Part shown: in pieces, positions 7,850-30,423 of the stretch
How the letters are laid out: each line of letters opens with the position of its first letter
Position numbering within the stretch: the stretch's first letter is position 1
Origin: Pseudophaeomoniella oleicola
Taxonomy: Eukaryota; Ascomycota; Eurotiomycetes; Phaeomoniellales; Phaeomoniellaceae
DNA length: 64,000 bases
Assembly (NCBI GenBank): GCA_003868215.1
Contig: QWDQ01000024.1
Coordinates: forward strand, 124,001-188,000
Direction: 5' to 3'
Position numbers and translations under genes: made by a program
The notes under the pieces: generated by a model
What the model was told of the DNA's origin: nothing
Databases searched by the model: none
The model's input: the letters and a program-made list of their open reading frames with translations, nothing else

Positions 7850-9753
7850 ATGTCTGTTCTCACCAAGACTCTTCTTCAATGTCTGCTGGCAGGGTGCGCT
7901 CTGTCATTCGCGTTGTGGCTACTCAACGCTCTCGTCACTCAGCTGCTCGAGTTCTGGGGGAAATTGAATCCGCCATGCAATCTTCCCGTCGTCAACTTGG
8001 ATGGTTGGCAGTTTGAAAAGGCGAAACGAGAATATCTGTCCCATCTTGAGAAGTATTTGCGTATCGGCCGTGAGAAGGTTGGTCAACATGCCACCCCGTG
8101 TGTGATATCAGAGGAAAGTGCAAGCTGACTGGGAGGTCCTGCTGGCAGTACAAAGAGACAGGTTATATGCTTTGGAGTCCCGAAGGCTACAAGATCGTTC
8201 TGCCCACATCTCTTTACGATGAGATACGTCTGATGCCTGATTCTGTTGCTAGCAATTATGCAGTGGGGATGGTAGGTGTCTTCGATCATTGAGCCAGGGA
8301 TAGAAATGACTGACCCATCTAGCGCATCTTTGGAGGCTATGATTTCCTGAATATAGGGCAAGATATGTCCCTTGTGGCACATGTCACCAACAGTCACCTG
8401 CTTTCTGGGCTAAGTAAGAGATGGGAAGACATCCCAAGCGAGAGGAATTGCTCATGTGGATTTGACAGGTTCCCTTGATGCTTCACCTTCGGAGGAAATT
8501 CAGGCGGCCATTCTCAGAACCGTACCTCAGGTTGATTGTCTGAGTATTGTCTGGTCATCTTCTGATCTTTCGCTGACGATATTCCCAGACTGGCAAGATT
8601 TCAACGCCTATCATGCCATACTCGAGGGCCTCAAGACCTGTATATCGACAACAATCTTTGGCCGTGAACTTGGGAACGACCAAAGGATCAGGGACTCCTT
8701 GTTAGATTTTGTAAGACAGATCCCTCAGGCCGGGGGTGCACTGAGAAGAAAACCCTGGTACGCGAAGGCTTTCGCTGCAGAGCTTGGCTTCATTCCTCCC
8801 GTCCAGGTTGCTAGAAAGTATATCGCGCGTGGCAAGGCATTGGTTGCTCGAGAGCTTCGGGCAAGAGAACAGGTTCTGGATCATCATGGCGAGGACGAGA
8901 AGCACAATGACTTCATACAGTGGTTGTACAACACGAACGAAGCAGAGGGCAGTCCAAGGTCCCTCGAAAGACTTGGGGAGATCGCCTATCTCGCTGTGAC
9001 TCCATCGATTCATACAACCTCGTTCGCGCTTCTAAATGTCATTTACTATCTCGCATGGTTTGGCCAATATATCCAGCCTCTGCGCGATGAGATCGATCCG
9101 GTGTGGAACAAGTGCAATGGCATCCTAGACCTTGCAGCCGTCAACCGACTCGAAAAACTGGACAGTTTCATCACTGAAGCGGCGCGCCATGCCGCACTTC
9201 TCAGACGTGAGTACTTTACGATCTCCCCTCAGGCTAATTAACTGAATGCGTGTGAAATTTCCTCTTCCCTTTCAAAATTGCTGATCCTGTGCATTGTCTG
9301 GCAGTCATCTGCGACCGAAACATAACCAGCAAAAAAGGCCATACGTTCTCGAACGGCCTCCACGTCCACCACGGCGCCACAATCGTACTCGACCTGCAGG
9401 GCCAAGAAACCGACCCCGAACTCTGGGACCACCCAGAAGAATTCCGCCCATTTCGTTTCCAAGAGCTCCGCTCCAGTAGCAGCAACAACGACAAACAAGG
9501 CCTCACCTACGCCTCGACGCACATCAAGAACGCAATGCGCTTCGGCAGCGGCAGACACTCATGCCCCGGCCGAGCCTTTGCGTCGATGATGATGAAGATC
9601 TTTTTGGCGACGCTGCTGCACGAGTACGATATCGCAACTGCACCGGGTACGGAACCGATCAAACCGATCTCGACGGGTGTGACCGAGATGTTTCGAATTG
9701 ATGTTCCTGTACTGGTCCGAAAGAGAGGTGGTACTGAAGCATCTACCAAGTAA
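7850..9753 (+). CDS. Cytochrome P450 monooxygenase A
   Basis: Haem-thiolate monooxygenase, probably an ER-anchored tailoring enzyme. Model: exons 7850-8077, 8149-8271, 8323-8413, 8469-8537, 8589-9206 and 9305-9753 (525 aa, phases consistent). The intron at 8538-8588 is 51 nt and frame-neutral; I infer it because splicing removes a stretch foreign to P450s and it contains CTGAC before CCCAG. The N-terminal helix is LLQCLLAGCALSFALWLL. EAAR supplies the K-helix ExxR. The haem loop is FGSGRHSCPGRAFA. The I-helix reads TPSIHTTSFA instead of the usual AGxDT, as in the fungal ent-kaurene-oxidase-like group. The first donor, GTTGGT, is weak. It begins the gene cluster that includes the PKS at 20.2 kb, which suggests hydroxylation or oxidation of the polyketide; the substrate is unknown. 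Confidence 0.88.
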
Positions 9754-10327
9754 TTAGCAGTAGTCACTAGAATATACTACCTAGGTAGTTACTGACTGAA
9801 CGAATAACGAGCATTGAATTCGGACAACGTTGCCCCAAGGAAATAAAAGCTCTTCTCTTCAGGCCGTACCGAAATAGCGTCTACAGTGCAAGATCACGTT
9901 ATGCAGGCAACCTCGAGCCTCTCGAATCTCCAAGAGTTAAGGCACGGTGGAATGAAAGCTGTAAATATGTACTATGTACCCACGGGACTGTAGATAGAAG
10001 TCTGTACCTCAATAACTTAGCTTTAAAACCATCATGGCCGTTGGGCCCCGACTTCGGTTGCTTTTCCGATACTAATACGTACCTAAGTCTTTCAACGACA
10101 CAGGAGAAATGGATGATATTATCTGGCCGGAATAAAGTAATCTGTGGCACAACATAAAAAGCTCCCATTTTCCTTCCGTCTGGCCACGATAAAGCTCCGT
10201 AAAACATCTTAGACTGCTGCTGGCTTCGCCTCTGTAGTCTGCATGCCTAGTATCTTTGGTCTGTGCGACTGACGGCGACGATGACCTCATTTATCACTAA
10301 AAGCCATGCCGACACGTGCATCAAGAC
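9754..10327. other. Convergent intergenic region between the two P450 genes
   Basis: 574 bp between the 3' ends of P450 A (plus) and P450 B (minus). An ACCTAGGTAGTT motif sits at 9779-9790, just after the stop of P450 A. No gene or clear terminator structure was recognised. Confidence 0.45.
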
Positions 10328-12230
10328 TCAACTCGTTCGCTTCCTCAGCTTGACGTGAAAATCCTTGCCCGTGAAACTTGCGGATTTGGTCAGTGAAGTC
10401 CTTGTCGGGTGCCAACAAGGAGAATCCTTACTAGATGAGCAACAGATCGATCCATTTCATGTCTTCGTCAGTGGTATCGTAGATTTCCAGCTCAAACCTG
10501 CGGAAGAGATTGCCGAGGAACGTATATAACTCGCAGAAAGCTAGACTGAAATAATATTGATGATCAGTCCAAACAGGTCAAACAAGTGAGCGGAATATAA
10601 TACTTACTCTCTTCCTAAGCATTGCCTCGAACCTCGGGAGAAACTGGCCATATATTTCTCTAGGTTCGCGGAGTCGTGGCTAAGCCATCGTTCCGGACTG
10701 AATTTGTCGGGGTCGATCCAGACGTCGCGATGACGGTTAAGAAGATACGCCGAGGTGTTGAGAATGGTCTTGGAAGTTGTCAGCTCAAACCTCATGGGAA
10801 ATAGTGGTACGAATTCTTACACCACCAGGAACCACATGCCCGTGAAGAGAATACCCTTCTGGAGGTACGACTCTGGGCAGGCGGCCGGGAAGGGGGTAGC
10901 TACAGCGAAGCAGCTCTTTGATCACGGCTGTCTAGATCTGGTCAGTCGATCCTGATCTCTCGAAGGCCTTTTAATTGACCTACCAGATATGGGAGCTTCT
11001 TGGTATTATCGTAATTGATCTCCGCTTGCACGTTCGGGAAGGACATCGCCAGCTCGCTGTTTAGTTTTTGATACACCTCCGGATTCCTGAGAATCTGATA
11101 GATCCCAACGATCATAGCATCGGAAGCTGTGTCGTTTCCTGCGGATAGTAGCATAATGACCTCCTCGGCAAGTTGATTGTCATTCAGGACACTGTGATCT
11201 TTGGTCAAGGTAGGATCCAGGAGCATATCAATGACAATCGACCGGTCAAACTCTTTTCTCTGCAATGACACCTCCGCATCTCCCACTCTCGGAGCGTTGC
11301 GCTCACGCAAGTAATCGTCGATGAGAAGGAGGCACTTCTAAATACGAATCAGCAGAGTCGCACCATCCAGCGACTGATGAGTATACTTTTTTGAAATCCT
11401 GCAGTGGGATGGGGAAAATCCTTTCCGATATCCAATCTGGCAAGCTCAAAGAGATCTTGACGAGATTAGGGAATGCAGGTGCAACCCAGCCCATCTCAAA
11501 CGTGGCGTGAAGGAATTCGATGAACTGGTTTTGAAAGGTGGGATCTTCAATGACACCGAGCTCTTTACCAAATACGATCTTCGATATGATGTCCATGGTG
11601 AAAGCTTTCGTGCTCCGGCATACATTCACCGCCGACTCTTCTCGGGCAAACTCTTCGAATCTTTGCAACAGCAGGTCGACCTTATCTTTAACCATCGGTG
11701 CTAGGTCTTGTACCCGCGCCGGCGAGAAGGCTGGAGTTAAGACCGATCGTCGAATACGATGCCTTCCGGGCTCACTTTCGCCGATAGACGTACCGGGGAA
11801 GGTGACGTAGTCGTAGAAGGCAGGATCCTTTGTAAAACGGGAGCCGACCCGGGTCATGTCGACAAAGACTTCTGGGTCATTGATGTGGAGTTCATTTGGT
11901 CCGACGCGAACGATCGGTCCTGTAAAGATCAATAAATGAGTTGACTCTGAGAGATGATGCGTACCGAATTTGTCATGCAAGCGCTCGATCTCGAACAAAA
12001 GCTGCCCAGTATGGTGAAAGTTCCAATACCACTCGTACCTTGATGGACAGTCAGACCTTCCAGAAGAACGAAGAAGACAAAGCGACATACCATGGTTTAG
12101 ATGTAGCTGCAATAGCTGAGCCTGGATAGCGAGATAGAGGATGCAAGAAGATACGATAGAATGCCCGACATATCCAAAAGATCAGATACGATACTACCGT
12201 TACTGCTGCGGCTGTAGGAAAGGAAGTCAT
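10328..12230 (-). CDS. Cytochrome P450 monooxygenase B (CYP65-like)
   Basis: Eight exons read downstream from 12230: 12230-12091, 12038-11965, 11919-11387, 11337-10980, 10927-10821, 10768-10608, 10545-10432 and 10376-10328, giving 511 aa with consistent phases. Introns are 45-62 nt and several show CTGAC branch points. An N-terminal helix precedes the RIFLHPLSRYPGS hinge typical of fungal CYP65-type P450s (the trichothecene-hydroxylase-like group). The I-helix has SAGNDTAS with the oxygen-activating AGxDT. KELLR gives ExxR, PERW follows, and the haem loop is FSRGSRQCLGRDLA. The last tiny exon supplies the usual basic tail (TGKDFHVKLRKR). It is transcribed divergently from the FAD oxidase. Likely role: hydroxylation, epoxidation or multistep oxidation of the cluster polyketide. 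Confidence 0.9.
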
Positions 12231-13085
12231 GTTGACGCAGATGGGAATCGACCGCGAGTAGGTGCAGTTGCTCTCTCGGATCTCACAGTATTGATTGAGT
12301 ACAAGAATGTCAGTTGTATTTCTTTGCCAGGAAGCACTCTCACGAAATATGCAGCAGAGAATGACCAAGCACTTTCTGATGGCGGGTAACCCACGTAGAC
12401 TCCCACCACAGCATGATGCTCTGTACTTCTGTACCTGCGTCCTCGATGATGAAATTGTCATGCCCAAGCTTCAAGGCGGATTTCTTCTGTATCAGACCCC
12501 ACGAGACTACGACGCACATGCACGTGCTAAGTGGGACGTAGTATCGAATGCAGTTGTACGGACAATTCACATGTCCCTTACTACGTAGTACCGGATCCTA
12601 TAAGATGTCCGAAACATGGTTGACAACAGTATCCAGTAGGCACTAAGTCTCTTAGTATCGAGACTTCTACTGCTGTCGGGCTTCATCAAAAGTGTCCGAC
12701 GTGGGGGCGGGAAGATCACAGTACGGTAAACGTAATACCTCTCCTGAATTTACCTTACCTGCCGTGCTTACATGTAAGGTACTCGTACGGTAATATTGAC
12801 TGCCGAACGCCTCCTTTCCGAATATAGCAACATTGATGGATAACTACGAAGTTCAATAACCCAATGGTAAACTTCCCCTTATCCAAGGTAACCTAGACAT
12901 GGATCCAAAGGGGGGGCCAAATGCAAATACTACCAGCGTCGCCAGATTTTGCCTTGTTGGTTGCTCACATACAACTTATATACCTGACTATATAACTTCA
13001 GAATGGCGCCGCTATCTACAAGAGAAAAGGGAGGGTCAATTGGCCGGTTCAAAGATTCCCAACCGACCGGAGCGGATAAACAATC
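12231..13085. promoter_or_regulatory. Shared divergent promoter region of P450 B and the FAD oxidase
   Basis: 855 bp separate two oppositely oriented cluster genes, so both promoters must lie here. This layout is typical of co-regulated fungal biosynthetic genes. No pathway-specific activator site can be assigned by eye. Short TACGTAG- and CGGTAA-like words recur (for example TACTACGTAGTA near 12579), but they are common in fungal DNA. Confidence 0.5.
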
Positions 13086-14739
13086 ATGAGGCCAGTCATT
13101 GCCCTCAACTTACTCCTGGCGCTTGTCCTGGCTCCATTTCAACACGTATATGCTGATGGCAATGCCCATGCCTGCGCGATGCTTGCGTCAGCAAGTCCGA
13201 ACCAAACCGTGATACACCAAAGTGGTACTGTTTATACAGGAGGAGCTCAGGGCTATTGGTGAGCAGCTTTCCATCCTCGCAGAAGCATCCTCCAATTAAC
13301 GACCGTTCTTCTAGGTCAGCAACGGCCTGGGAGTCCCCTTCGTGTATTTACTCTCCTCGATCCGCCGATGCTCTTGCTCGAGCTCTCAAACAAATCACCT
13401 CTGCCAACGCTACCTTTGCAATTCGCGGTGGTGGCCACTCGCCGCTCCCGGGATGGTCCAATATCAACGGCGGAATCCTCATTCTCACAAGTGCCATTGA
13501 CGACCTCGAGTTCAATCCGTCATTGTCAACAGTACGGGCCGGAATGGGGAATAGGTGGGGAGCTCTCTTCGAGTATCTGGAAACGTTCGGTCGCACCGTC
13601 GTCGGTGCTAGGGATCCGCATGTTGGGCTGGCCACAATCCTTGGAGGTGAGAGAGCCCTTGGTTTGTCTGGTGTATGTCTGAATTGCGATTGTTGACTTC
13701 TGATTCAAGGCGGTCTCTCTCACTCGTCGAACGAGCATGGCTTTATCTCGGACAACATCATCTCCTTTGAAGTAGCGACTACGGACGGTCGCTTGATCAC
13801 GGTAAATGCAACATCCAACCCCAATTTGTTTTTTGCCCTCAAGGCCGGCACCAACAATTACGGTAAGTGCGATTTCAACCCCCTGAGCACTGGGACAAGC
13901 AGGGGCTCATATTCGTATGCGTGATAGGTATCGTAACACATGTTACCCTGCGAACTTATCCAACCAGCAAGGTATGGGGTGGAGCGATAGTGTATACCAA
14001 TGACCATCGTGACGAAGTCATGCGTGCATTTGCCGATTACCAGCGATCCGGTCAACTAGACACCAAGTCAGCGGTCCTGAGCTACATGGGGATCAATAAC
14101 AACACAATATACGTGATCCTCGTGTATCTCGACGATGTTGAGCGTCCAAACGCTTTCGACGCGTTCTACAATATACCCTCCAAATTTGATGGGACCAGCA
14201 TGCATGATAACTTTACCGACCTCATCAGCCAGGGGCTTGATTTCGTGGTACCGAGGTGGACGTACGGCGCGACGACATTTCTCCTGGATGAGGCTACCTA
14301 TGTCGATGTCGGCCGCATCTGCCAGAACGCAACAGCTCGTCTTGCAACGATCAACGGTGGCTCGATGGTTCTCACGCCGCAACCGATATCTGCATCCATG
14401 GTAGCGGAGTCCTGGAAACGAGGCCCCAATCCGATGACAACCCACCTCAAGCATGCCGCGCAGATGTGGCTGTGTCTCAATATGGGGTGGAATTTCGCGT
14501 CGGATGATATGAAAATTCAAGAGATCCTGCTTGACACGCTGGCGTCGATTGATGCGTTGACAGAGTCACGGAATCTGCGTCATCCATTCATATTTGTCAA
14601 TGACGCTTACATGTCGCAAAGGCCTTTTGCAAGCTACGGCAGAGATGTGGTCAGAGCCTTGGATCATACCCGCAGGGAAACAGATCCCTTGGGTTTCTTT
14701 CAACGAAATGTGCCGGGGGGATTCAAATTACACCAGTAG
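13086..14739 (+). CDS. Secreted FAD-linked oxidoreductase (berberine-bridge-enzyme type)
   Basis: Flavin oxidase of the VAO/PCMH fold. Exons 13086-13258, 13315-13646, 13710-13862 and 13928-14739 give 489 aa, with every junction in frame (introns of 56, 63 and 65 nt). A cleavable signal peptide is evident (MRPVIALNLLLALVLAP...YA). The FAD-binding domain includes FAIRGGGHSPLPGW; His99 is the expected 8-alpha-FAD attachment site. The GGGLSHSSNEHG loop and LKAGTNNYGIVTHV follow. The C-terminus has a BBE-type ending (YGRDVVRALDHTRRETDP). Homologous enzymes in fungal polyketide clusters perform alcohol oxidations or oxidative cyclisations, for example the solanapyrone synthase class, where oxidation sets up a Diels-Alder reaction. 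A similar late step is plausible here but unproven. An (AT)n run follows the stop. Confidence 0.9.
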
Positions 14740-15169
14740 GCAATCATATAATATATATATATATATATACGAGGTAGTTCTCTATCTACTGTGTACATAG
14801 TACCTTATAAATCCTACCTACCTACCTATACCTAAGGTACCTAAGGTACATGTGGCGATGACGGTGCACTCGTCAGGAACGCGTAAACATCTATCGTGTA
14901 CGGTAAGGTTACTCGTATCTGTATCGGGTGATAACAATGACGCTCCAGTTTTGAACTTTCGATCTAGTAAGCTACGGCCCCACATAGCGCATTGTGAGTA
15001 AGCTGCCGTTTCCCCGCCGTGTAGATCACTTTGGGGGCAGTTACCTAGATAGGTAACCGGTATCTGGTACTTAGGTACGGATTTAAAGGCACCATAATTC
15101 CACTCCTCCACGCCCTCCAATCGTCTAGATCCAGGTCAGACCAACGTTGACATCACACCACAAATCAGT
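14740..15169. other. Intergenic region with an (AT)n run and a TAGGTA-rich block
   Basis: 430 bp between the FAD oxidase and the SDR, containing the SDR promoter. An alternating AT run is at about 14746-14769. A block of overlapping CCTA and ACCTAAGGTACC words lies at 14813-14850, with further ACCTAGATAGGT at 15043-15054 and TTAGGTAC at 15071-15078. Confidence 0.55.
14746..14769. repeat. (AT)n microsatellite
   Basis: About 24 bp of alternating A and T directly after the stop codon of the FAD oxidase. It is read directly from the sequence. Confidence 0.8.
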
Positions 15170-16206
15170 ATGGGCAACTTCTTCGCTTTCGTCTATCACC
15201 AGCTATCTTTCACTCCTCAACCACTTCCGGCAGAGACGTCACTTGAGGGCAAAACTGCGATTGTCACCGGCGCCAACAGTGGTCTCGGCTTTGAAGCGGC
15301 TCGAGAGTTAGCTTCCCACCAATTATCGCGCCTCATAATTGCTGTTCGCGATGTCGAAAAAGGCAACAGCGCCCGTGAAACCATCTCCAAAGAAAACCCG
15401 AAATGTGAAATTGAAGTCTGGCAGGTTGATTACGAGGCTTACGACAGCATCATCGCCTTTGGCAACAGAGCTGCACAGCTCACACAACTCGACTACGTAC
15501 TCCTAAATGCTGGCGTAAAAATGCTAGAATATACAACTTCTCATACAGGCCATGAACTGAATGTCCAAATCAATCACCTCGGCACTTCTCTTGTCTCGCT
15601 TCTGCTCCTTCCAATTCTTCAGAAGACGGCCGATGCCACCGGACAGCCCTCTCGCATGACAATTGTATCTTCAGAAGGGCATTTCTGGATCCCCTTCCAT
15701 GAGCGCAAAGCCTCGAACATACTCGCACGCATGGATGAGAAGTCTACATTTGGCACGGCCATGCAGAGATACTACACCACCAAGCTGTTGAATGTGCTTT
15801 GGACGAGAGAACTGGCCAGCCGCATCCCGAAAACGCAAGTCATCATCAACAATGTTAACCCAGGCTTCTGCTACAGCGGCCTCCATCGTCATGACCACGG
15901 GCAGGGCTACAAATTCTTCCTCCGTTTGATGGGCTGGACCAGCACTCAAGGCGGACATTGCTTGACAGACGCATTGGTGAACCATGACGGTTCTCATGCA
16001 GCTTATTTCAGTGAACAGAAGGAGACACCGTATGTGCTGCTCCATCCAGCCTTTTGATCATGCTGGAAGCTAACCATATTAACAGTCCATCGTCGTTCGT
16101 CACATCCACTGAAGGTCAAGCAGCCCAGAGGCAGATTTGGAATGAAACTTTGACTCTACTCAAGCAAGAGGCCCCTGAGGCGAAACTTCCAGCCTTTGCT
16201 ACTTAA
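15170..16206 (+). CDS. Short-chain dehydrogenase/reductase
   Basis: NAD(P)-dependent oxidoreductase, 326 aa from exons 15170-16029 and 16086-16206 (intron of 56 nt, GTATGT...CAG, phase 2). Rossmann motif TGANSGLGFEAAR lies near residue 34, LLNAGV is the structural NNAG equivalent, IVSSEGH supplies the catalytic Ser, and RYYTTKLLN contains the YxxxK pair (Tyr followed three residues later by Lys). PGFCYSGL follows, as in the family. The protein resembles the NADP-retinol-dehydrogenase-like and phomacin/terpene-cluster SDRs of fungi. It sits in line with the FAD oxidase and the PKS on the plus strand and is probably a ketone reductase or alcohol dehydrogenase acting on the polyketide. The substrate is unknown. 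Confidence 0.9.
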
Positions 16207-17657
16207 CAGCATCGCGGAAATCTTCGTATGGCCAACCAAAACATCGAGATATGGCAGATGCACAGAGAAGATATACATTCTCTCGTGGCCGAGCTAGGAA
16301 AGGGAGCGAGGTCAGGCTGCAAAGGGTGGAAATCTGGTATGATTGTGCAGCAGGGGTTCTCCTTTCGCTCCATGTGTTCCCACCTTCACGCTTGTCTTCT
16401 ACCAGTCCCTTGAGCCACGACCACGACTCAAGGTAGGCCTCTCTCCATTGTAGCTCACCAGATGCTGCTGTCTTCTGCTGTTCCTAGATTGGGCGTCAAG
16501 GTAGCTCAAGCACACGGTTGGTTTTGGTAAGGCTTCGGACATACGTATCCTCTTAGAGCAAAGAATAAGCAAATGGCCGTGATAGACCTTCCATAACGTC
16601 GGGTAATGCTATATCACAGAGGCTCGTCATCCCCGAGACGGTCTCACCCCGCATTACCGAAATGGAATCCTGCGGTGCAGGGAAGTATGGACGTAAGTTA
16701 CCGGATGTTCGGGTTCAAGAGTGCGCACAGCATCCCTCGCATCTGTCTCCGAAAAGAGTTCGAGAGCCTTTGGATTCACAGCAGCATATTTTCAAATATG
16801 GCCGTTGCCCGGACATAGCCGAGATAGCAGCTCATTGCCATTCCAATTCATTGAAATACTCGTACATGTCCGTTGGACGGTGGACACAGACCCATAAACA
16901 AATGCTCTTAAAACAAAGGTCTGACCATGGGCAGCAGAACTTTGGACTGACGAGAAATCTCGAGAAGTCATCGTGGCTGATTCCAGACCGCCCCCATTCC
17001 GTAGCAAGCACTGTATCGTCTCTCTGTCTGCATGTCTCAGCCATTTCGCAATCCGAAGTCATGGCTAGGCATGATCACGATAAAATGCCCCGCATACATC
17101 GGATTCCGAAGCTGCGCTTATTCTCAACTACTCGAACCCTGCGACAATATGATGACCCGATGGTTCCCACCCTTGCAGATGTCTGGCCCCAAGCAGTAGG
17201 GGTACCTAGTGAATTACCATGCTGATTCCATGCCGATCATCGGCTTTGCCAGCATGGTTTGCTGTATGCATACAACGTTGTATTGACCTGAGCGATCCTC
17301 GCTGGTCATTCGTGGGTCACCGAAATGTGAGAGTGCCACCACCGTTGTTGCTTTGGGGGCCATGCAAGACGTCCAGGGAATCCATATATGTTGCACAAAT
17401 GCATCGCTAGACATGGGACATATGCACGTAGGCTTATGTCGTGGCGACAGGGAGCAAGTTCAAATGGTCAGACTCCCACAATCGATCCTGCCACTCATTC
17501 TCTCTGTGCCTTCGCATTATCGACACCCAGGTGCAACAGCTGTTTGCCAAATATTTTAGCATCACGAGCAACATATTTATATCTCCTTGACGCTCCAAAG
17601 TCATCCAGAGCTGTCGTACACTGTTCTCAATTCGAGAACCTTTCGACATCAGTCATC
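16207..17657. other. Intergenic region, no gene recognised
   Basis: About 1.45 kb. The longest open frame (16662-17225, plus) has no domain, shows strongly basic, His/Ser-rich composition and no family resemblance, so I leave it out. It could be a decayed gene of the cluster, but nothing in it is recognisable. Confidence 0.4.
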
Positions 17658-18932
17658 ATGACTCCGCTCCCCCCAAATCCCCTTGGGAGGAAAGTCGTTG
17701 CGGCTGCCTCGGTAGGGGTATTTGTTGATGCCATTGTCATCGTCTTACGCTTGTGGTCGAGGAAATTGAGGAAAAGGAAGCTGGTTCTTGGAGACTACTT
17801 GATGATTGTAGCGTGGGTGAGTACACAACACTGTTCTATTTCAAGGAAGAACTCGCAAGAGCATCATGCTTTACTGGAAATTTCGAAGCCGTTTTGACCA
17901 GAGGCCGCTCTATTGGTATCTCATCTAACTCGAAGTTCCCAGGCATTACTTTTAGCCGACCTCATCAGAAAGGGTATAGGTATGTAATTCAGGAGTCCGC
18001 TGCATATACTGGCCGTGAACCTCGTTGACATTGTATACCAAATCGTGCAGCGTACAAATGGGGCGTTGGTTTACATATGGAGGCCATCCTCACAACCGAT
18101 CCTTCGCACCTTCGTGACGCCGCCAAAATCACGTTTGCGCAATACTTTGTCTGGATCGCTTGCGTCACTTGCATCAAACTTTCTGTCCTTCTTGTGTACT
18201 GCGAGTTGTTCTGGACCCTCACGTGGTTCATCTGGTGTGTACGGGCAACTATGGCTCTTGTGGCGATGTGGTCTATTGCTTTCACGATAGCAACGTGTCT
18301 GCAGTGCACGCCTGTTGCAAAGATCTATTGGCCCTTAACGCCAGGGCACTGCGGGATAAGCCTTCTCAATGGCTTCATAGTCATGGGAAGTATAAATATG
18401 TTGACCGATGCTATCATAGTGGTGTTGCCCATACCGGTGGTTTTGACGTTGAGAATTCCTATATGGAAGAAGATCGCGGTATGCGCCCAGTTCGGGCTTG
18501 GAACTCTGTAAGTCTCCTTTTCATAATGAGGCAATGGTGTTGATATTGATCATCGGTAGAATACTGTTCGTCGTGGGTTGGAGGTTCAAGTTGATCAAAG
18601 AGCAAAATCCTAACGATTACATCCACGACGGCGAAAAAGCGGGCATTCTCATCTGGCTCGAACTGTACCTCGGCGTGATCTCTGCCTGTGCACCCTTCCT
18701 CACACCTCCGATGGCCAAACTGGGCACCTTCGTGACGGATTCAACAATTTATAATCGCATTTTGTCCCGCAACAGTCAAAAGTCTTACGATTGTAACGAA
18801 CTAGAACGGCAGAGCGACTCGAGCAAAGATAAACTGCCAAGACTATACGAAAGTTCTCAAAAGAGCGACGAAGAAGCCACTGGCCGGGTTGAAGACTCAA
18901 CTTATAACGCGCACATACGGGCAACGGTATGA
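17658..18932 (+). CDS. Seven-helix SAT4/PTH11-like integral membrane protein (fungal rhodopsin-like domain)
   Basis: Exons 17658-17816, 17943-17979, 18051-18507 and 18560-18932 give 341 aa. The 37-nt second exon, flanked by good introns (GTGAGT...TCTAAC...CCCAG and GTATGT...GCAG), restores the frame and the second helix: MIVAW|ALLLADLIRKGI|AYKWGVGLH. The hallmark core FAQYFVWIACVTCIKLSVLLVY, MWSIAFTIATCLQC and the Pro-rich IVVLPIPVV are typical of the fungal rhodopsin-like family (DUF also called SAT4). It is abbreviated between helices 6 and 7, then has ISACAPFLTPPMAKLG and a polar, Ser/Lys-rich cytosolic tail. The family is found in secondary-metabolite clusters and among PTH11-like sensors; its biochemical role is unsettled. 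In this cluster it could sense, bind or traffic the product. It is not a classical MFS or ABC pump. Confidence 0.85.
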
Positions 18933-20168
18933 GGTATAGGAAGTCGTTTCAAGAGGCTGATGATGGCATGATTTCTATCACGGAGCGCAGAATAGACCCT
19001 GCACGGGTCTCGGAAAGTAGGGGAGAACTTCGCCTACAATCATGACCACTTTCTCTTGTGGCTTCCGGTAAAAAGGAGAAGAAGGCGAACGAGGTTGAGA
19101 CGTTTTCATCGAAATCGGTACCCTTTCGCGCGTAAGACTAATGGCCCAATGGTGGAAGTCCCCCGTCTGTATGCTGTCTTATCCAATGATCTCAATATAT
19201 ATACCTCATATTTGGAATTCCACAGAGCTCGTTCAGTGTTGATCCTCAGAGGGCAATGCCCTGTCGTTGCGAATTTTCCGCAGCCTTAGTCCTGGCGGAC
19301 CTGAGCGTTCATCTACAATAAGCAGCCGTCGTTCATGTGAGTGGATGGTTCGTAAACGTCTGATAATGTGGAGCTGCGCATGGGCATCAAAATCGCCCCT
19401 ATCAAATTGGTTCTGATGTACATAAGAAAGCTGACCGGGTGCTCGTAATCATGACGTGTATTTCATACCAAAAAGCGACCTTGGAAACTTTTAATTACCA
19501 CCTGGTCAACTTTAGCGAGCACCAGATCATCTAGTAGGTAAGTTACTCCCGTGGATTACTGTAATTATTTCATTCAAAACATAAGGTAATTTTAATTACA
19601 TTAGGTATCTTAGTAGCTATGAGAGGCAGATATCAACCAGTCACTTATAGCCTAGATGTCAGAATCTTTCCTCACTAAATTCATGCCTTGCTTCTACGAT
19701 CACGCTCATCCCAGCTAAATCACTTTGATTTGATGAAAGCCGTCGTTGAGGCGCCGCCCCTTTCTGACCCGGTGACGCTTCCGACCCTCTGATAACGCCC
19801 GCGACATGGCCCCCACCCCGTTTCTGTTTCTCGCATTCCGAAGACAATATTACACCTCGACACTAACTTACATACAGGCCCAAAATGCTTATCTCCAGCG
19901 TTCCAGCACAAGCAACCGAGACGACCTCCTTGATGACATGCATAGTAACCCAGGATCCATTGCCTAAACGGTCCATGGGCCGAAGGCTGCGAGACCAGAT
20001 GCCCACTATCAAGCAGATGGTGGCAGTGACCTTGGCGTACATAAACAGTGGATGAGTTGCTCGAATAGCTCTAAAGCAATATGCCTTTCATATCAAAGCG
20101 TCTCCTACTGCCTGTCTACCAATGTGGAACACTTTACTTTGTTCTTGCAGGTACTGAACCATCCCATT
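18933..20168. other. Intergenic region containing the PKS promoter
   Basis: About 1.2 kb. A 19500-19620 stretch is AT-rich with TAGGTA words (19535-19540 and 19602-19607). Short minus-strand frames near 19659-19911 lack any recognisable content. The PKS promoter must lie in the right-hand part. Confidence 0.45.
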
Positions 20169-23100
20169 ATGCCTTTTATTGAGTCAAATGGGATCCATAC
20201 TTCATCATGGGAGTCGGCCAGGCGTGATCTGGAGGCCACAGATCACCCAGAACCGATAGCTATTGTAGGATTAGGTAAATGCCTAGAAGTCAGGATATGT
20301 TTGTTGAGGCTGACCATGTAGGATGTCGATTACCGGGCGGCATATCGACGCCTTCAGAGCTGTGGGATTTCCTGTGCGAGGAGAGAGCTGGTTTCCGCGA
20401 ATTTGGTCCAGATAGAATCAACCTGGATGGCTTCTACCACCCCAACCACCAACGACCAGGGAGTATTGCAACTCGTGGAGCATATCTCCTCGACGAAGAT
20501 CCGACCTTGTTTGATCACACGTTCTTCGGAATGAAACCTGCAGAGGTCCTGACCCTGGACCCGACTCAACGAAAACTGCTCGAAGTCGCATACGAGGCCT
20601 TTGAGAATGCCGGAGAACCGTGGGAGAGGTTTTCCGGTTCCCGCACGGGAGTCTTCATCGGCAACATGAACACCGAGCACGCTACGATGCAGATGTATGA
20701 TGCTGATTTTGCACTACCGTATTCTCCCACCGGTGGCAGTTCAAGCATCATCAGTAACCGACTCAATCACGTATTCAATCTCAAGGGCCCGAGGTACGTG
20801 TGGCCGTTCTGGGTGACGCTGATACCTCGCTGATTGACGGCAGCATGACAATTGATACGGCGTGCTCCTCGTCCATGTACGCGCTCCATTTGGCCGTTAA
20901 TGCTATTCGTAATGGAGATTGCGACGCTGCCATAGTGGGGGGCAGCAATCTCATTTCCCGCCCCGAGATGCAGCTGCTGACCAGCAAACTCGGCGCTCTG
21001 TCCCCAACTTCAACTTGTCACACCTTTGACAGCTCAGCCGACGGATACGGCCGTGGAGAGGGCTTCGGTGCTTTGTATTTGAAAAGGCTATCCGATGCCG
21101 TAGAAGGACAATATCCTATTCGCGCGCTTGTCAGAGGAACAGCGATAAACTCGTCCGTGGCATGCAAATCCGTCGTTTCTGAATACCCACTGATGTGGCT
21201 TTAGCAACGGTCGAACTGCGGGCATTTCGCACCCGAGCGTAGAAGGTCAGGAAGCGCTCATCCGCCAAGCGTACAGAAGCGCAGGCCTTTCCACTCGCTA
21301 CACCGCGTATTTTGAGTGTCACGGCACGGGAACCCAGGTAGGTGACCCTGTGGAAGTATCTGCGATTGGTAGAGTCTTTGCTGCAGACCGCGAGGACTCG
21401 CCGCTGCTCATTGGATCGGTAAGACTACCACTACGAATTGAGACTCGATGCTCGATGCTGATGGTCGTACCGCAGGTAAAGACGAACATGGGACACGGTG
21501 AGTCGGCGAGCGGTGTGATAGGAGTCATGAAAACCATCTTAGCAATGGAAAATGGGATGATCCCTGCGACCATTGGCGTCAAAAACCCCAACCCCAGCAG
21601 TGAGTCTATCGGGCGCGTATTTGGAAGACCTTTTCGTATGCTGAGCAACACAAGTCAACTTTTCAGAAGCAAGAGTCCGGGTGGTCACGCAAATGACCCC
21701 TTGGCCAGAGAACCTTCCGAGAAGAGCGAGCGTGAACTCGTTCGGATATGGAGGTGCAAACGGTCACTGCATTCTTGAACACATGCCGATGGTTGCGTCT
21801 GAGTTCCCAGATCTATTGTCAAGGAATAGACTAGTTCGCCTTACGAAAAGCGCCGAAGCCAAGATGCAGACTTTCATCCCATCTATGTCTGAAGGTGCTG
21901 GTCGTCGGGTACAGCCACGGCGGCTTGTGCTGCTTCCATTTTCGGCTCACGATGAGTATTCTCTCAATGCGAACATCTCTGCGATCAAGGAAGCTCTTGG
22001 ACGTGGTCAATGCTCATTATTGGATCTCGCATTCACCCTATCAGAAAGGAGGTCAAAATTCCTGCACCGAACTTTCCGGGTTGTCGACACTATGGATCCT
22101 GCGAAGGCGCTCAGCGATAGTAAGGCGCCAGGGGCGAAGTCTTCAGGTGCTCAACCTACCCGGGTTGGTTTTGTCTTTACCGGTTCGTGTTCCACCGCGA
22201 GTCCCAAAGCAGCGTATCGTCCTACTGACTTTTTCATTTGCAGGCCAAGGAGCGCAGTGGCAAGGCATGGGCTCTTCGCTGTTCGAATACCTGGTCTTCC
22301 GAGATTCAATAGCATACCAAGTCTCAGTTTTACAATCGCTTTCTTTTTCGCCGCCGTGGAACATTGAGGACATTTTACGCGGAAAGTCAGATCTATCCGT
22401 TCAGGAACCAGATATTTCCCAAACGGTCTGCACGGCACTTCAGATCGCGCTCGTTGATCTGTTGCGATCATGGAGCATCATCCCACATGTGGTGGTGGGC
22501 CATTCGTCGGGGGAGATCGCGGCTGCATACGCAGCGGGCCATCTTTCAGCAGCGGAAGCCGTAACAAACGCGTATTGTCGAGGTCGAGCACTGAGGAAGA
22601 ACCAGCTGTGCGGTCGTATGCTTGCCGTCGGTCTGTCAGCCGATTCTGCCGCTGTTTACTTATCGGAGGTTGGGGACGAGGTGAAGATCGCAGCTGTCAA
22701 CTCTCCGGAAAGCGTCACCTTGTCAGGAAATGCTGACCAGATTGTGAAGCTACAAGAGCGCTTTAAGGAAGATCAAGTCTTCAACAGAATGCTTCATACC
22801 AATGGCATGGCGTATCATTCGGGCCACATGCTTCCGGTCGGCGCCGAGTACGAATCACTTTTACGGCTGGCCCAAGAGCAGTTGGGAGTACCGGGCAACA
22901 TGTTCACAGCAGAGAATCAGAAGGGTCATACTCGCTGGATCTCTTCAGTGACTCCAGATAATAATGTATTCGGGAGGCAGCCTACTTCAGACCCAACATA
23001 TTGGCGACGCAACCTCGAATCGACCGTTCAATTCAACCACGCCGTTGATGTCCTTGTCGCGAATGACGCCTCATACGCGGATATTCTGCTAGAGATTGGC

Positions 23101-26100
23101 CCTCATTCGGCATTGCAGGGGCCGTTGAAGCAAATTTTCGAGAGATCTTCAGCTGAAACGCAAAGAATCGTGCCTGCTTACCTGCCATCTCTCAAGAGAT
23201 TTGAAGATGGCATGCAAAACCTTCTCGACATGTGCGGATCGCTGTTCTGCATGAACTCTGCCGTCGACTTGAACACGGTCGGCGCGCTTGACATCCTCGA
23301 GAACAACGACCACCGCTATGTCTATGGATCTGTCTGCCACGACCTGCCTCCATATCAATACAACTACGGGACGGGGCCTCCAAATTACTACGAGAATCGG
23401 ATCAGCAAAGAAATCAAGAGGCGGAAATATCTTCACCACGATCTCCTCGGTGTGCTCCAAATAGGTTCCCCGAGGGATCGCGCGGTGTGGCGGAACATGT
23501 TGCGGGTGAAGGACGTGCCGTGGCTGAAAGATCACAAGGTACAAAGTCAAACATATTGTTCTATTATTGATGATACGCTGACTATGTTCAGTTAATCCCA
23601 AACGCTGTACTACCGGCATCTGGCTACATTTCCATGGCTGCAGAAGCGTCGGCACAATATCTCGGCCTGGACGGCGACGCAAGGAAGACCGCCTCATTTG
23701 TACTGAGAAGCGTATCAATCAAATCCGCAATGCAGCTGCCAGAGGACGAATTAGGTCTCGAGGTCATGCTATCTTTGCAAGTTTGTTCCACAGCGCCAGA
23801 ATGGCTGGAGTTCACCATCTCATCCGTTGTACAAAATCCGACGACGTGGACGAAACATGCAACCGGTATGATATCAGCGAGACCTGGTGTACCATCTCGA
23901 AATTCAACTCGTCTCAACGTTCCAATGGACCCGCGAGTAATTGATGTCGAGGATTGGTATGAGAAATTTGCCGAGATCGGTCTCGGATACGGGCCATCAT
24001 TTCAAGGTCTGACGGAGTTGCTATCACACCCGGTCAAGAATATTGCGACAGCGAAAGTAAATCTATACACTACCGAGGGAATGTTTAAAGGGCCTGAATC
24101 CCCCTACATAATACATCCAGCATCATTGGATATCTGTCACCAACTTGCACTCATTTCGTGCCATGGGGGACAAACCGGCCGGATCAAACACGCTTTCATC
24201 CCCGTCTTTATTGAAGAGATGAGCGTGCGGAGCTGCGAGGCCAGTGAAACGTGGGGCACTGGTCTTGCAGCCGGCCGGCTCAGTGGACTGAGAGGGGCTC
24301 AGGCAGATGTACAGCTCTTCAATCAATCCGGGGAATTACGTTTGGAGATCAACGGTCTTCGGTGTGTAGCTCACCCTGGAGGCACGAAAAGTACTGCTCA
24401 ACTTCCAAGTCCGTACGCTCGCTTGGTATGGAAACCAGATATTGCGTCTCTTTCGTTCGATCAAGCGAAGCACCTTTTCCCACCTACGTTGCCGCTGCAC
24501 GCTGTGCAGTCGACTTTTGATGACATGGACAAAGTCTCGAATTACATGATCATTGATATCGCGCAGCGATATAATGACCTGGTTCCTAAGGAAGACCATC
24601 TCCAGAGGCTTTTGGCTTGGACGCGACGTCTTGCGGTCCAAAACTTGCCATATGCTGAAGAAGCCCGCGGGAAGACGAGCGAGGATCGTCTGTCATCCAT
24701 CGAAGGCTTCTGCACCTCTTTACATGATGTCGTCGACGTGAAGCACACCAGGCGTATCTTTGACAACATGCACGACATCCTTTGCGGAAGGAAGAGTGGA
24801 GTTGAGATAGCGCTCCAAGACGGCCTTTTAGCGGAGATGTATGCCTCGGGGATAGGTATCTCTGCGGCGTATCCCCAACTCGAGCGCTTGTTGGACCTGC
24901 TGGGCCATCAAAATCCGTCTCTGAAGGTGCTGGAAATCGGTGCTGGGACTGGGGCTGCCACGCAGATCGCGATGCGGGCCCTTGGTGCCGAGTCCTCCAG
25001 CAGACGATACAAAAGCTATACCTTCACCGACGTGTCCAGCGCCTTTACACAGAAGGCAGAACAAAAGTTTTCAAATTGCAACAACGTGACATATCGGCGG
25101 TTTGACATGAACAAATGTCCTATTGCGCAAGGCTTCGAGACAGACTACGACCTCGTGATTGCATCGGAATGCTTGCATGCCGCCAAAGACATCACGATCG
25201 CCCTGCAAAACGCCCGAAAGCTGTTGAAGGACCAAGGAAAAGTGATACTGATAGAAACTAAGCGGACATTGCTCGGTCACGGTCTTGCTTACGGTACGTT
25301 CCCTGACTACTGGAGAGGAGATGACGGTCAAGACTCTCCTTTCATGAGCACCGAACAGTGGGCACAAAGCTTAAAAGCCACTGGTTTCTCGGGGGTCGAT
25401 ATTGAACTCGATGATTACGAAGCACCACTGGGAGTGGCTTCGACAATTGTCACAACTGCCGTGGAGTTGGAACCAGAAAGGCCGATATCTCATGCACAGG
25501 ATACGGTACACATCGTGTTTCTGCATGAGCAGGGAACATTCCACAATACGTTGGCATCAGAGCTCTCCGAGAGAAGTCTCACGCCGGTCCTCACAAAACT
25601 AGATTCCTGCAGCTTACCGGACAAATGTAGGGTGATACTTACAATCGACTTGGAATCACGACTTGCCGATGCCGACGAGCACGAATTCGAGCAGATCAAA
25701 GCCCTGGTCAGACGGGCATCTTCGGTGCTGTACCTTGCCCACGGCGGCCTGCTTTCAGGCGCCAACCCGAAAGCGGCGATCGTGACAGGCCTTGTAAGGA
25801 TGCTGATCACTGAAAACACTCTGTCGCGGTATGGGGTATTTCATCTCGAAGCGAGCTCTGAGGCCGAGGACCACAGGATGGCTCGGCTGATCGCGAAGTG
25901 CGAATCTCGTATACATGGGGGTGATTTCGAACGCGAATTTGCGGTGCAGGATGGCGTGCTCCAGGTCAGTCGGCTACTTTTGGACCGTGACCTCAACCAG
26001 CGTTATCAATTGATGCATCATTCGGTGACGGGTCCGATCGAAGGACGCCTCCAAGAACATGGCCCGATGATGGTCGACTTCGAAACTCTAGGACTCTTTA

Positions 26101-28415
26101 GTTCCTTGTACTTTAGAAAGGACTGGTCGTTCGAAGTACCTCTGCTAGATGACTGGATCGAAGTCAAGACCACTGCAATCGGACTGAATTGGAAGAACAT
26201 TGGCGCTGCATCAGCAAAAGTCAACTTGGACGCCTTGAGCTCAGAGTGCTCCGGCGTGATCACAAAATGTGGAAAGTCGGTCCAGGGTCTCAAGCCGGGC
26301 GATTTAGTCTACGCCCTGGCACAGGGGAAATTTGGGAACTACGCCAGATTTCCTGCGTCTCACTGCCAATCTATGCCGACCTCCTGTGACTTCTCTCCCC
26401 TCGAATTGGCGTCGCTGCCGATAGTCTTCTGTACCGCGATCTATGGCCTCCAGCACCTGGCACGTCTCCGAAAGGGTGAAAGAGTGATGATACAATCGGC
26501 CACCGGAGGTTTAGGTCTCGCCGCTATCCAGATCGCGAAGTTAGTTGGCGCCGAGATATTCGCCACCGTGGGAGCCGAGGATAAGGCTCAGCATCTACAA
26601 GTACACGGCATACCCAAAGAGCGGATATTCACAGTTCGTGACGTCAATGCCACTGCGGACATGATGGCAGCAACGTCAGACAGAGGATTCGATGTTATTT
26701 TCAGCACGTCCACGGGTGCGATGATGCACGAGACTTGGCGATGCATTGCACCTCAAGGCCGCTTCATCGACGTCGGTCGCGTTGATGTGCAGAATTCCGG
26801 GACCCTTGCTTTGGAGATTTTCCAGCGCAATGTGTCCTTCTCCTCATTCGATTTGAACGTTCTGACCGCTCAAGATCCTGAGCTGGGTGGAGAGTAAGTT
26901 GCATCATATCGATTGATCACGGCATGCTGACCCTTTCCAGATTGATGCAGGAAGTGGGCAGGATGTTGGACCAAGGTCTGATTCGCCCGATCAGTCCGGT
27001 CACGAAATTCAATGTATCTGAGCTCGATCAAGCGCTTCTCTATTTCTCGAGAGGAAAACACACCGGCAAGATTGTCATTTCATTTGAGGATGAAACTGCA
27101 CAAGTCAAGGTACGTTTAAAGAAAAATCTGCATATCTCCATCATAGGAACCAACATAAAGACAGATGCTACCTCCTCCCCCTCGGGCCAGGTTTGATCCC
27201 GGAGCCCAGTACATCATTTTTGGCGGTTTGGGAGGACTGGGAAGAAGTGTCTTGCAGTGGATGGTCGACCGCGGTGCCAGAAACTTGACTGTATGCTCTA
27301 GGTCTGGTAACCATCCCATACAGGCGACAGGTCTGATCCAAGACCTGAAATCTCTGAATGTCAACGTGAAGTTCAGAAGCTGCGATATTGGTATGAAAGC
27401 ATCCGTTGATGAAACTATCAGGGTCACAGCGGCAGCGGGACCCATCAGAGGTATAATTCATGCCGCGGGCGAATTGAACGATGGATTGTTCGACACACTT
27501 TCATTCGATCAATGGAAGCGCGGCATCTCTGCCAAGATGCATGGTAGTATCAATCTTCACGAGGCCACGTTGAAGTACAATCAGCCACTCGACTTCTTCG
27601 TCATGACCAGTTCCTTCGAGGCCGTGGTTGCTTTGCCGACCCAAGCAGCTTACTGCGCAGCCAACAGTTTCCAAGATGCCTTCGCACGTTACCGTAGAGC
27701 TCGTGGCCTCCCAGCATGCGCCATCGCTTTTGGTTTGATCACCGAAGTTGGCGACGTCGGACAGACAACGATCGCAAGGCACATGATCCTTCGGAATGGC
27801 CTGTACAAAACCGGCGAATTAGAGTTTCTGAGGCTTCTGGAGGCTGCGTTCCTAGACACCCCTGTCACTGTTGGTGAGCGGCAAGGCCATTTTGACCCCC
27901 TCGCTGAGGCGCAGATCACGACGGGCCTGGAGCCCTTCAGGCTTGCAAAATTGGTACAGCAGGGGGAGGACACAGCAAATCCGAATCCACCACCACGATG
28001 GCGCTCGGATAAGAAATTTTCACACCTCGTTCAATCGATGGACGATCATGTCTTCTCGGCGAAGAAGCGACCTGATCAAAGGGACGCTCAGCATGCTGCG
28101 GCAATGTCAGCCTTGCTCAAATCGCTCGATGACGCCATGGAAAAGGGAACCCTCGACGACGCCACTCGCATCGTGAGCAAGTCGATTGTCGAAAGGACCG
28201 CAGGACTCATGTTCCTGCCTCACGAAAGTATCCGCACGAGCGAGTCGATCGCAGCATACGGCGTTGACAGTCTGATCGCGGTCGAATTCAGGAACTGGAT
28301 GATTCTCACATTCGAAAGCACGATCCCCTTGCTGAAGCTGTTGGACGAGGCGCTGAGTATCAGCGAGTTGGCCGCTTACATCGTTGAGGAAAGGAAGCAG
28401 AAACTGCATGCTTGA
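20169..28415 (+). CDS. Highly reducing iterative type I polyketide synthase (KS-AT-DH-MT-ER-KR-ACP)
   Basis: Core enzyme of the cluster, 2585 aa. Ten exons: 20169-20274, 20322-20793, 20844-21152, 21205-21418, 21476-21599, 21667-22182, 22244-23538, 23592-26893, 26941-27109 and 27165-28415; all phases agree. KS: IAIVGLGCRLPGG, active Cys200 in DTACSSS, His335 in ECHGTGT and His374 in KTNMGH. AT: GQGAQWQGMG, nucleophile Ser668 in GHSSGE. DH: His1011 in DHKLIPNAVLP (a Pro replaces the usual Gly), Asp1192 in HPASLD. C-MT: LEIGAGTG near 1460. ER: about 1845-2150 with SATGGLGLAA. KR: FGGLGGLG near 2185, MTSS and YCAAN near 2332. ACP: Ser2538 in GVDSL, close to the C-terminus. There is no TE, reductase or condensation domain, so product release needs another enzyme or occurs spontaneously. 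It uses malonyl-CoA, SAM and NADPH and should act in the cytosol. All catalytic residues checked are present. Confidence 0.95.
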
Positions 28416-28870: not shown

Positions 28871-29896
28871 TCAATAAGCATATTTATCCCTCCCACTCTT
28901 CACCCTCAACCCCAACATCTCCTCCCTCAAATCCCCCTTGCGATACGCCTTCTTCAGACGCCGCACCTCGTCGTCGTCGAGTTTGCGCCCGACTTCCTTT
29001 TCGAGTTCCGAGCGCGAGATCTTTTCCTTGTCGGTTGTTTTCTGGGTCGAGAGGGCGAGAGTGGTGGGGTGGTGGGCGGATTGCATTCGGAGGATTAGAT
29101 AGGTTGTGGTTGTGGTGGTGGAAGAGGGGGAGGGGCCGTCGGAGCGGAGGGTAATTGTTTCGGGAGCTGAGGGGTTTTTTTGGGGAGCGGAAAGGTAGCC
29201 GGGGGTTAGGCGGGGGGAGTCGCTGGTGTCGTTTGGGGTGCTGCTGCTGCTTGGACTGCTAGTTTGCAGGACGAAGTGTCGGTCAGAGTGGTAGTTGGAT
29301 CCATCTGTTGTGAGAGATGACTGAATGTTGCTTAATGTGAACGTTTCGGCTTTGCTGACAGCAATGGATGTCGCACGTAAACCGCTGTGTTCGTCGACGC
29401 CAAGGTAGTTGCCATAACAGCTTTTGAAGCTGTACTCGACGGATTCTGGATTGTTATCGCCCACCTCCTGTTTTACGAGAGCCCCACTAGATGTACCGGA
29501 TGCTTGCACTCTTGCTTTTTTGCTCGCGGAGCTCATCGGGGTGTTGGTTCCGGGAATGCGCTGTACAATCCATACAGTGCGGACATCGTGGGGTTCTGCA
29601 GTTCCGGGGTCGCCTTCGATCATGTTCTCGAGTTTGGCCGCGAAGACCTTGCCGTTTGCATCTGTCGCAAGAGCGGTAGGAGGGTCCGTGGGCAGCACTA
29701 TTAACGTCGGGCCGGAGAGGTGGGAAACGCGGTCCAGGGATATCCAAGTATCGTTGACATCCGCGCCGCCTGAAGAGGGATTGCCTGGAGCCGAGGATGG
29801 CGGATCGTCTGTGACAATGTTGTCGCTATCTTCAAGCTTGCGCTTCTTGGTGTGTTTCTTGGGCTTGTCGCCCTTGAAGGTGAGGGGTTTCACCAT
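28871..29896 (-). CDS. FRG1-like actin/RNA-associated nuclear protein
   Basis: 341 aa, no intron needed. It starts with a lysine-rich nuclear-type N-terminus (MVKPLTFKGDKPKKHTKKRK), then has a beta-trefoil-like region with DTWISLDRVSHLSGPTLI and SFKSCYGNYLGVDEHSGL (the latter matching the FRG1 KSGYGKYLGI element). It ends with the family's charged tail KKAYRKGDLREEMLGLRVKSGRDKYAY, split here as RLKKAYRKGDLREEM and SGRDKYAY. Human FRG1 is a nucleolar protein linked to pre-mRNA splicing and F-actin. The fungal version carries Ser/Thr-rich insertions (about 195-245), so it is longer than the 258-residue human protein. Probably a housekeeping gene marking the right edge of the cluster. Confidence 0.82.
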   Translation of the reverse strand: MVKPLTFKGDKPKKHTKKRKLEDSDNIVTDDPPSSAPGNPSSGGADVNDTWISLDRVSHLSGPTLIVLPTDPPTALATDANGKVFAAKLENMIEGDPGTAEPHDVRTVWIVQRIPGTNTPMSSASKKARVQASGTSSGALVKQEVGDNNPESVEYSFKSCYGNYLGVDEHSGLRATSIAVSKAETFTLSNIQSSLTTDGSNYHSDRHFVLQTSSPSSSSTPNDTSDSPRLTPGYLSAPQKNPSAPETITLRSDGPSPSSTTTTTTYLILRMQSAHHPTTLALSTQKTTDKEKISRSELEKEVGRKLDDDEVRRLKKAYRKGDLREEMLGLRVKSGRDKYAY

Positions 29897-30423
29897 TGGG
29901 CAAGGCGACTTAGAGCAGTACCTCCTGGGTTTTGATTGTTGTTATAAGGTCTAGGTATGCTCAATGGTGATCGTCTTCCAATTTGAGATTGAACGCAGGG
30001 ACCCCGTTGATAGTAGAGGTCTTTGGCCTATTTGCTGACCACTGGGGATGTTCCTAGAGCGAGGTCCTTGGATGAGGACGTAGATTATACAATAGAGTGA
30101 GAATTAGAAGCGTTTGAATATACTGCAGTGACCAGTCAACATGTGGGGAAGCTCTTGAGAAATCGACGTCGCAAGTGAAGAGTCCCGCACCGCAGCCTTA
30201 CCCAACGACTTATCGATTTAGGCGTTCGCCTAATGGGGAAGCTCCCGATGCTTGATAACGAACCACTGGAATCGACTTATCTAGACCGGGCGCGCCGATT
30301 GGGATGAGGCGCCTTCGATCCATTTCTGTTGTGCCTTTCGTTAATCATTGTTTTCATTGATTTGACTCAGTCTTCCTTTGAAGAGTCTCTTCTGGCAAAT
30401 ACATTTGTACATCAGCCATCATA
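29897..30423. other. Divergent promoter region between the FRG1-like and dioxygenase genes
   Basis: 527 bp between two oppositely transcribed genes. Nothing further is recognisable. Confidence 0.45.

What the first reader, a model, noticed from the sequence alone, without database searches (positions are those of the whole stretch)
7850..28415. Uncharacterised reducing-PKS cluster pairing a FAD oxidase, two P450s, an SDR and a SAT4-type membrane protein
Seen: six complete genes within 20.6 kb, with all frames restored by canonical introns and all PKS active sites checked present. Known: berberine-bridge-type oxidases next to reducing PKSs can drive oxidative cyclisations, as in the solanapyrone-type pathway. 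Inference: a C-methylated reduced chain is oxidised and possibly cyclised. The combination with a SAT4-like protein and without O-methyltransferase or transcription factor does not match a cluster I can name.
Basis: partly seen in the sequence, partly recalled or inferred. Interest (0 to 1): 0.75.

Follow-up and report, generated by a model that had tools for sequence, protein, structure and literature searches.

The report
Fungal reducing-polyketide gene cluster, uncharacterised
An intact-looking six-gene fungal cluster that probably makes a methylated, oxidised polyketide; its synthase and its flavin oxidase are found together in several other fungi, so it is a new member of a known kind of pathway rather than a new kind.

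Summary
Six intact genes lie in window 7850-28415: P450 (542 aa), P450 on the minus strand (511), FAD oxidase (489), SDR (326), a PF20684 membrane protein (341) and an HR-PKS (2589 aa, KS-AT-DH-MT-ER-KR-ACP); all 27 modelled introns are GT-AG. RING and FRG1 genes flank it. Oxidase and PKS form a recurrent pair: for 12 of 29 named near-full-length oxidase relatives (37% identity or more), a PKS relative of the same species lies on a contig of identical length; best pair Zopfia rhizophila, 59%/59%. The orthologue's model has a BBE-like fold, but the Pfam BBE domain and second flavin Cys are absent; 34 of 35 close relatives have ND[A/G] where 12 distant ones have NY. Best reading: alternapyrone/solanapyrone-like, with pyrone release, P450 hydroxylation and flavin oxidation, perhaps ring closure. 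Known alt, sol and amp clusters hold most of these gene types, so the set is less odd than claimed. The P450s were not shown to travel with the pair; SDR and SAT4 were untestable across species. The one unusual part is the Pth11/SAT4-type protein. Product unknown.

The parts
7850..9753 (+). CYP1: cytochrome P450, 542 aa, 5 exons (7850-8077, 8149-8271, 8323-8413, 8469-9206, 9305-9753); IHTTS, EAAR and heme-type FGSGRHSCPG motifs
   Evidence: best relatives 37-40% identity, from metagenomes; other matches in the genome are fragments of 24-38%
10328..12230 (-). CYP2: cytochrome P450, 511 aa, 8 exons; AGNDT, KELLR and heme-type FSRGSRQCLG motifs
   Evidence: many distant paralogues in the genome
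13086..14739 (+). FADox: FAD-dependent oxidase, 489 aa, 4 exons, hydrophobic N-terminus; His99 at the flavin-anchor column, no second Cys, N444-D445-A446
   Evidence: orthologue P0001 model has an EncM/SorD-like fold
15170..16206 (+). SDR: short-chain dehydrogenase/reductase, 326 aa, 2 exons; TGxxxGxG and YxxxK present
   Evidence: a 36% identical fragment lies about 1.3 kb from another KS on C36
17658..18932 (+). SAT4-type membrane protein, PF20684 fungal rhodopsin domain, 341 aa, 4 exons, nine hydrophobic stretches by a simple plot
   Evidence: (only PF20684 found)
20169..28415 (+). HR-PKS, 2589 aa, 10 exons: KS-AT-DH-MT-ER-KR-ACP, no release domain seen
5331..6515 (+). left boundary: RING-finger protein (ORF only)
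   Evidence: zf-RING_2
28871..29941 (-). right boundary: FRG1-like gene (ORF)
   Evidence: PF06229

Best explanation
It is a functional-looking biosynthetic cluster of the alternapyrone/solanapyrone type. The HR-PKS builds a reduced, C-methylated chain. It has no release domain, and none of the five genes beside it is a releasing enzyme, so the chain most likely leaves by lactonising to an alpha-pyrone. One or both P450s hydroxylate the chain or a methyl group. The FAD oxidase, with flavin bound through one His, oxidises the resulting alcohol to an aldehyde or ketone using O2; the carbonyl may trigger a ring closure. The SDR adjusts an alcohol/carbonyl. The SAT4-type protein is not an enzyme of the route but a membrane protein, possibly a sensor. 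Shown here: intact reading frames, motifs, the oxidase fold (on an orthologue) and the recurrent PKS-oxidase pairing. Inferred: substrate, pyrone, order of steps, cyclisation, roles of SDR and SAT4.
Against: No direct comparison with Sol1, Sol5, Alt4 or Alt5 was possible. Of the 29 named oxidase relatives, 17 show no partner in the 120 listed PKS rows. Equal contig length on megabase contigs does not prove adjacency. The permutation test ignores species kinship. In alt' the flavin oxidoreductase, and in amp all eight genes beyond PKS and OMT (oxidoreductase, P450s, SDR included), gave no new product on co-expression, so tailoring genes in such clusters need not act. A metallo-beta-lactamase-fold ORF lies at 276-1028, beyond the RING gene; I take it for a DNA-repair nuclease from memory, but a releasing enzyme elsewhere is not excluded. 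P450-1 was not found with the pair elsewhere.
Confidence: 0.45

Rival explanations
1. Decalin route: the PKS makes a polyene, the oxidase makes the dienophile carbonyl and holds the substrate for an intramolecular [4+2], as Sol5 does.
For: Sources name 12 relatives solanapyrone synthase and two (P0027, P0036) oxidase/Diels-Alderase; MaDA and MaDS1 share the fold; Sol5 acts so.
Against: The names look automatic. ER and MT motifs are kept, which allows but does not favour a polyene. A shared fold shows no function.
Confidence: 0.22
2. Non-redox use of the flavin scaffold: acid-base catalysis (aldol or double-bond isomerisation), as described for SthB and AspoA.
For: The close oxidase clade has Asp where distant relatives have Tyr (34 of 35 versus 0 of 12); SthB and AspoA precedents (PMC11375781, passages).
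Against: The flavin-anchoring His is kept in 44 of 46 letters at that column, which suggests the flavin is used. Whether the Asp lies in the active site was not measured.
Confidence: 0.13
3. A PKS-oxidase core with bystanders: P450-1, and perhaps the SAT4-type gene, are neighbours without a role in the pathway.
For: P450-1's best relative is 40% identical and none of the 16 rows lies on a paired contig length. PF20684 is common here: 38 loci by hand count of 56 rows, a lower bound, in 26.1 Mb, so about 0.03 expected in 20.6 kb.
Against: SAT4 and SDR lie between oxidase and PKS, and all six genes lie between a RING and an FRG1 gene. The search behind one search was weak.
Confidence: 0.3

Closest known systems
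alt / alt' (alternapyrone) clusters
   Same: HR-PKS of the same domain order, a flavin-linked oxidoreductase and several P450s; no OMT or TF in the five genes described (PMC11669671, PMC4936691, passages)
   Different: three P450s instead of two, no SDR and no SAT4-type gene described; sequence orthology not tested here
sol (solanapyrone) cluster
   Same: HR-PKS, FAD oxidase, P450 and a dehydrogenase (PMC11686517, passages)
   Different: sol has an O-methyltransferase, a Zn2Cys6 transcription factor and one P450; the first two were not found here
amp (amphichopyrone) cluster
   Same: HR-PKS, FAD-linked oxidoreductase, two P450s, SDR (PMC9146101, Table 1 passage)
   Different: also an OMT, another methyltransferase, another oxidoreductase and two unknown proteins; no SAT4-type gene named
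satratoxin cluster with SAT4
   Same: putative integral membrane protein SAT4 listed with SDRs and a PKS (PMC4117958, passage)
   Different: its PKS is non-reducing and the pathway is a trichothecene one; SAT4 sequence not compared
EncM and SorD (solved BBE-like oxidases)
   Same: fold of the orthologue P0001 over about residues 25-492
   Different: 17-20% identity; substrates differ
C47 cluster of the same genome
   Same: PKS, FAD oxidase and P450 within about 14 kb
   Different: only 27-42% (PKS), 31% (oxidase) and 30-33% (P450) identity by segment

Membership tests
Fungal HR-PKS | KS, AT, DH, MT, ER, KR and ACP domains with catalytic residues | tested here: met
   LovB is the best-scoring solved relative
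alternapyrone-type cluster | HR-PKS + flavin oxidoreductase + P450s side by side | tested here: met
   searches set; gene types only
alternapyrone-type cluster | orthology of PKS to Alt5/PKSN and of oxidase to Alt4 | not tested
   no row named so in the lists shown
alternapyrone-type cluster | alpha-pyrone product | not testable with these tools
   needs expression and chemistry
solanapyrone (sol) cluster | O-methyltransferase and transcription factor in the cluster | tested here: not met
   no such Pfam domain in 6 models and 17 further window ORFs, of which two lie in the cluster span outside the models; a short-exon gene could be missed
BBE-like / VAO-type flavin oxidase | FAD_binding_4 domain | tested here: met
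   E 8.6e-20
BBE-like / VAO-type flavin oxidase | BBE C-terminal domain PF08031 | tested here: not met
   no hit at E 1e-3; not among the precomputed domains of P0001-P0062 either
BBE-like / VAO-type flavin oxidase | whole-length fold | tested here: met
   on orthologue P0001, not on our own protein
bicovalent BBE | second flavin link through Cys | tested here: not met
   Ser here and no Cys at the two columns checked in 47 aligned relatives; the position was assigned from a recalled motif
Pth11-like / PF20684 (class XIV) | fungal rhodopsin domain PF20684 | tested here: met
   E 2.1e-43; class as in PMC13308352, passage
Pth11-like / PF20684 (class XIV) | CFEM domain, listed for the class beside PF20684 | tested here: not met
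   only PF20684 found; the review lists both domains for the class, not that each member has both
Pth11-like / PF20684 (class XIV) | receptor activity | not testable with these tools
   no ligand or coupling data

The most novel reading that the evidence does not exclude
The SAT4-type gene is a cluster-embedded Pth11-like receptor that senses the cluster's own product, a precursor or an outside cue and so stands in for the missing pathway-specific transcription factor; and the ND[A/G] oxidase clade is a distinct, uncharacterised lineage of PKS-partner flavoenzymes with chemistry of its own.
Probability: 0.1. Interest if true: 0.6.

Novelty: new member of a known kind. Interest (0 to 1): 0.33.

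Why it matters
A PKS-oxidase pair that recurs in Dothideomycetes, Sordariomycetes and Lecanoromycetes (classes of three of the twelve species checked), and for which the paper listings I saw describe no product, is a reasonable target for finding new oxidised polyketides and for testing what this oxidase clade does. If the SAT4-type gene proved to be a working part of the cluster, it would give a tractable test of what these abundant orphan membrane proteins sense.

Tried and rejected
P450 conservation: one profile search from an alignment of the two P450s returned 16 rows. SDR and SAT4 conservation across species therefore stayed untested.

SAT4 beside other PKS genes: the only other PF20684 locus within 20 kb of a KS match, on C33, lies by a gene that Pfam calls a thiolase, so it was dropped.

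Organism name: an 18S search of the own genome was asked three times and not answered; the name was left open. No RNA family reached its gathering score in the window.

ORFs inside or near the cluster without a model (16569-17225, 9789-10157, 7027-7461) and one overlapping the SAT4 start (17331-17897) gave no Pfam family; the first three gave none in NCBIfam. SAT4 gave no PDB relative at E 1.

Six locus tags of relatives were not found in the paper library. Other paper searches: (listings only). Nine papers were opened, passages only.

For these the confidence in the best explanation went from 0.5 to 0.45.
Full report
Observation. The window lies at C30:124001-188000 of a 26.1 Mb, 112-contig genome. 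From the raw sequence I built spliced models for the six genes. Order and strand: P450-1 (+), P450-2 (-), FAD oxidase (+), SDR (+), SAT4-type (+), HR-PKS (+). P450-2 and the oxidase are divergent, with 855 bases between them. Pfam confirms the type of each. The PKS shows all seven domains and its catalytic motifs align with those of 120 relatives. There is no RNA evidence, and a few donors are weak.

Surroundings. The cluster sits between a RING-finger gene and an FRG1-like gene; further right come a 2OG-oxygenase-like ORF (below the Pfam cut-off), an epimerase, NPR2, Ada3, a DUF7053 protein and a kinase-like ORF (below cut-off); far left lies a metallo-beta-lactamase-fold ORF at 276-1028. No O-methyltransferase, transcription-factor or transporter domain appeared in the 6 models and 17 further ORFs scanned; two of those ORFs lie in the cluster span outside the models, so a small or many-exon gene could have been missed. 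From 44.2 kb on, the DNA drops to about 11% GC with a strong RIP-type dinucleotide signature; the block continues to about 198 kb on the contig.

Recurrent pair. The oxidase search gave 86 rows and the PKS search 7739, of which 120 are listed. The searches were independent, yet for 12 of 29 named oxidase relatives (37-59% identity, 87-99% of the query) a PKS relative of the same species has the same longest-contig length: Zopfia, Westerdykella, Lojkania, Lindgomyces, Cucurbitaria, Coniothyrium, Delitschia, Monosporascus, Neopestalotiopsis, Fulgogasparrea, Stachybotrys and Sodiomyces. This is a lower bound, because only 120 PKS rows are shown; 17 of the 29 have no partner among them. Among the 11 named distant oxidases (P0051-P0062 without the unnamed P0060) one more, P0052 of Dendryphion, shares its 3.8 Mb contig length with PKS P0094. 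Five pairs have readable locus tags for both proteins and are 1 to 5 numbers apart. Four contigs are short (29-110 kb), which makes closeness likely; on the megabase contigs it is not proved. Tree distances of the 13 pairs, ours included, correlate (Spearman 0.57; 0 of 5000 permutations reach it), but species kinship is not controlled. Against: of the 12 PKSs nearest ours, 4 have a close oxidase partner, 1 a distant one and 7 none in the list, so the pairing is frequent but not obligatory.

Mechanism. The PKS has no release domain, and none of the five neighbouring genes is a releasing enzyme. In sol, pyrone formation releases the chain, the P450 Sol6 makes the alcohol, and Sol5 oxidises it and promotes [4+2] (PMC11686517, passages). 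In alt', the PKS product lactonises and P450s oxidise it, while co-expressing the flavin oxidoreductase gave no new product; in amp, adding the eight genes beyond PKS and OMT changed nothing either (PMC11669671, passages). XilA, 52.2% identical to Sol1, makes a simple pyrone that one P450 completes (PMC9147667, passages). Homologues of the sol cluster in Daldinia and Hypoxylon were linked to dalsymbiopyrone, another pyrone (PMC8403587, passages). I therefore commit to a pyrone-releasing route with P450 and flavin oxidation (0.45), with a [4+2] route (0.22) and a non-redox role of the flavoprotein (0.13) as rivals; these three are not exhaustive, and the bystander question (0.3) is separate.

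SAT4-type protein. PF20684 (E 2.1e-43), nine hydrophobic stretches by a simple plot, no CFEM domain found. A 2026 review places PF20684 with Pth11 and Pth11-like receptors (PMC13308352, passage). The genome holds 38 such loci by my hand count's 56 rows, a lower bound; about 0.03 would fall in 20.6 kb by chance, so its presence is suggestive, not decisive. No other of the 38 lies within 20 kb of a KS match except one on C33, where the match is a thiolase. The name SAT4 comes from a cluster that also lists a PKS and SDRs (PMC4117958, passage; that SAT4 is a PF20684 protein is recalled), so the company may not be new.

P450s and SDR. P450-1's best relatives are 37-40% identical and metagenomic; its other matches in this genome are fragments of 24-38%. 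P450-2 belongs to a large set. A relative of the SDR lies about 1.3 kb from another KS, on C36. A second PKS-oxidase-P450 trio exists on C47, only distantly related.

Verdict. An intact-looking, uncharacterised member of a known kind of pathway. The gene set is less unusual than claimed; what is new here is the evidence for a recurrent PKS-oxidase pair and the ND[A/G] signature. In the listings of my library searches I saw no paper on this pair or these loci; most were searched by theme, only by locus tag, and the library lacks most subscription journals.

Noticed in passing
window 44200-64000, continuing to about C30:198000 (L025): About 30 kb internal block with 8-21% GC and a strong RIP-type signature ((CpA+TpG)/(ApC+GpT) 0.29 in the window part); could be a mutated repeat island or a centromere.
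   Followed up: partly
C47:525-539 kb of the same genome (L046, L047): A second PKS + FAD oxidase + P450 group, distantly related to the one in the window.
   Followed up: partly
C59:51.7-57.1 kb (L028): An oxidase paralogue (24-40% by segment) beside a P450, with no KS match on that contig.
   Followed up: partly
C36:96.6-99.1 kb: A relative of the SDR about 1.3 kb from another KS domain.
   Followed up: no
oxidase rows P0001-P0043 versus P0051-P0062: Clade-specific Asp instead of Tyr in the C-terminal N[D/Y]A motif; its role is unknown.
   Followed up: partly
window 30400-31694: 2OG-Fe(II)-oxygenase-like gene just beyond FRG1, outside the cluster as drawn (below cut-off).
   Followed up: no
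PKS relatives P0091, P0092, P0094, P0100, P0101, P0121: Near relatives 168-240 residues shorter, aligned over only about half of the query in the best piece; an altered methyltransferase region was guessed, not checked.
   Followed up: no
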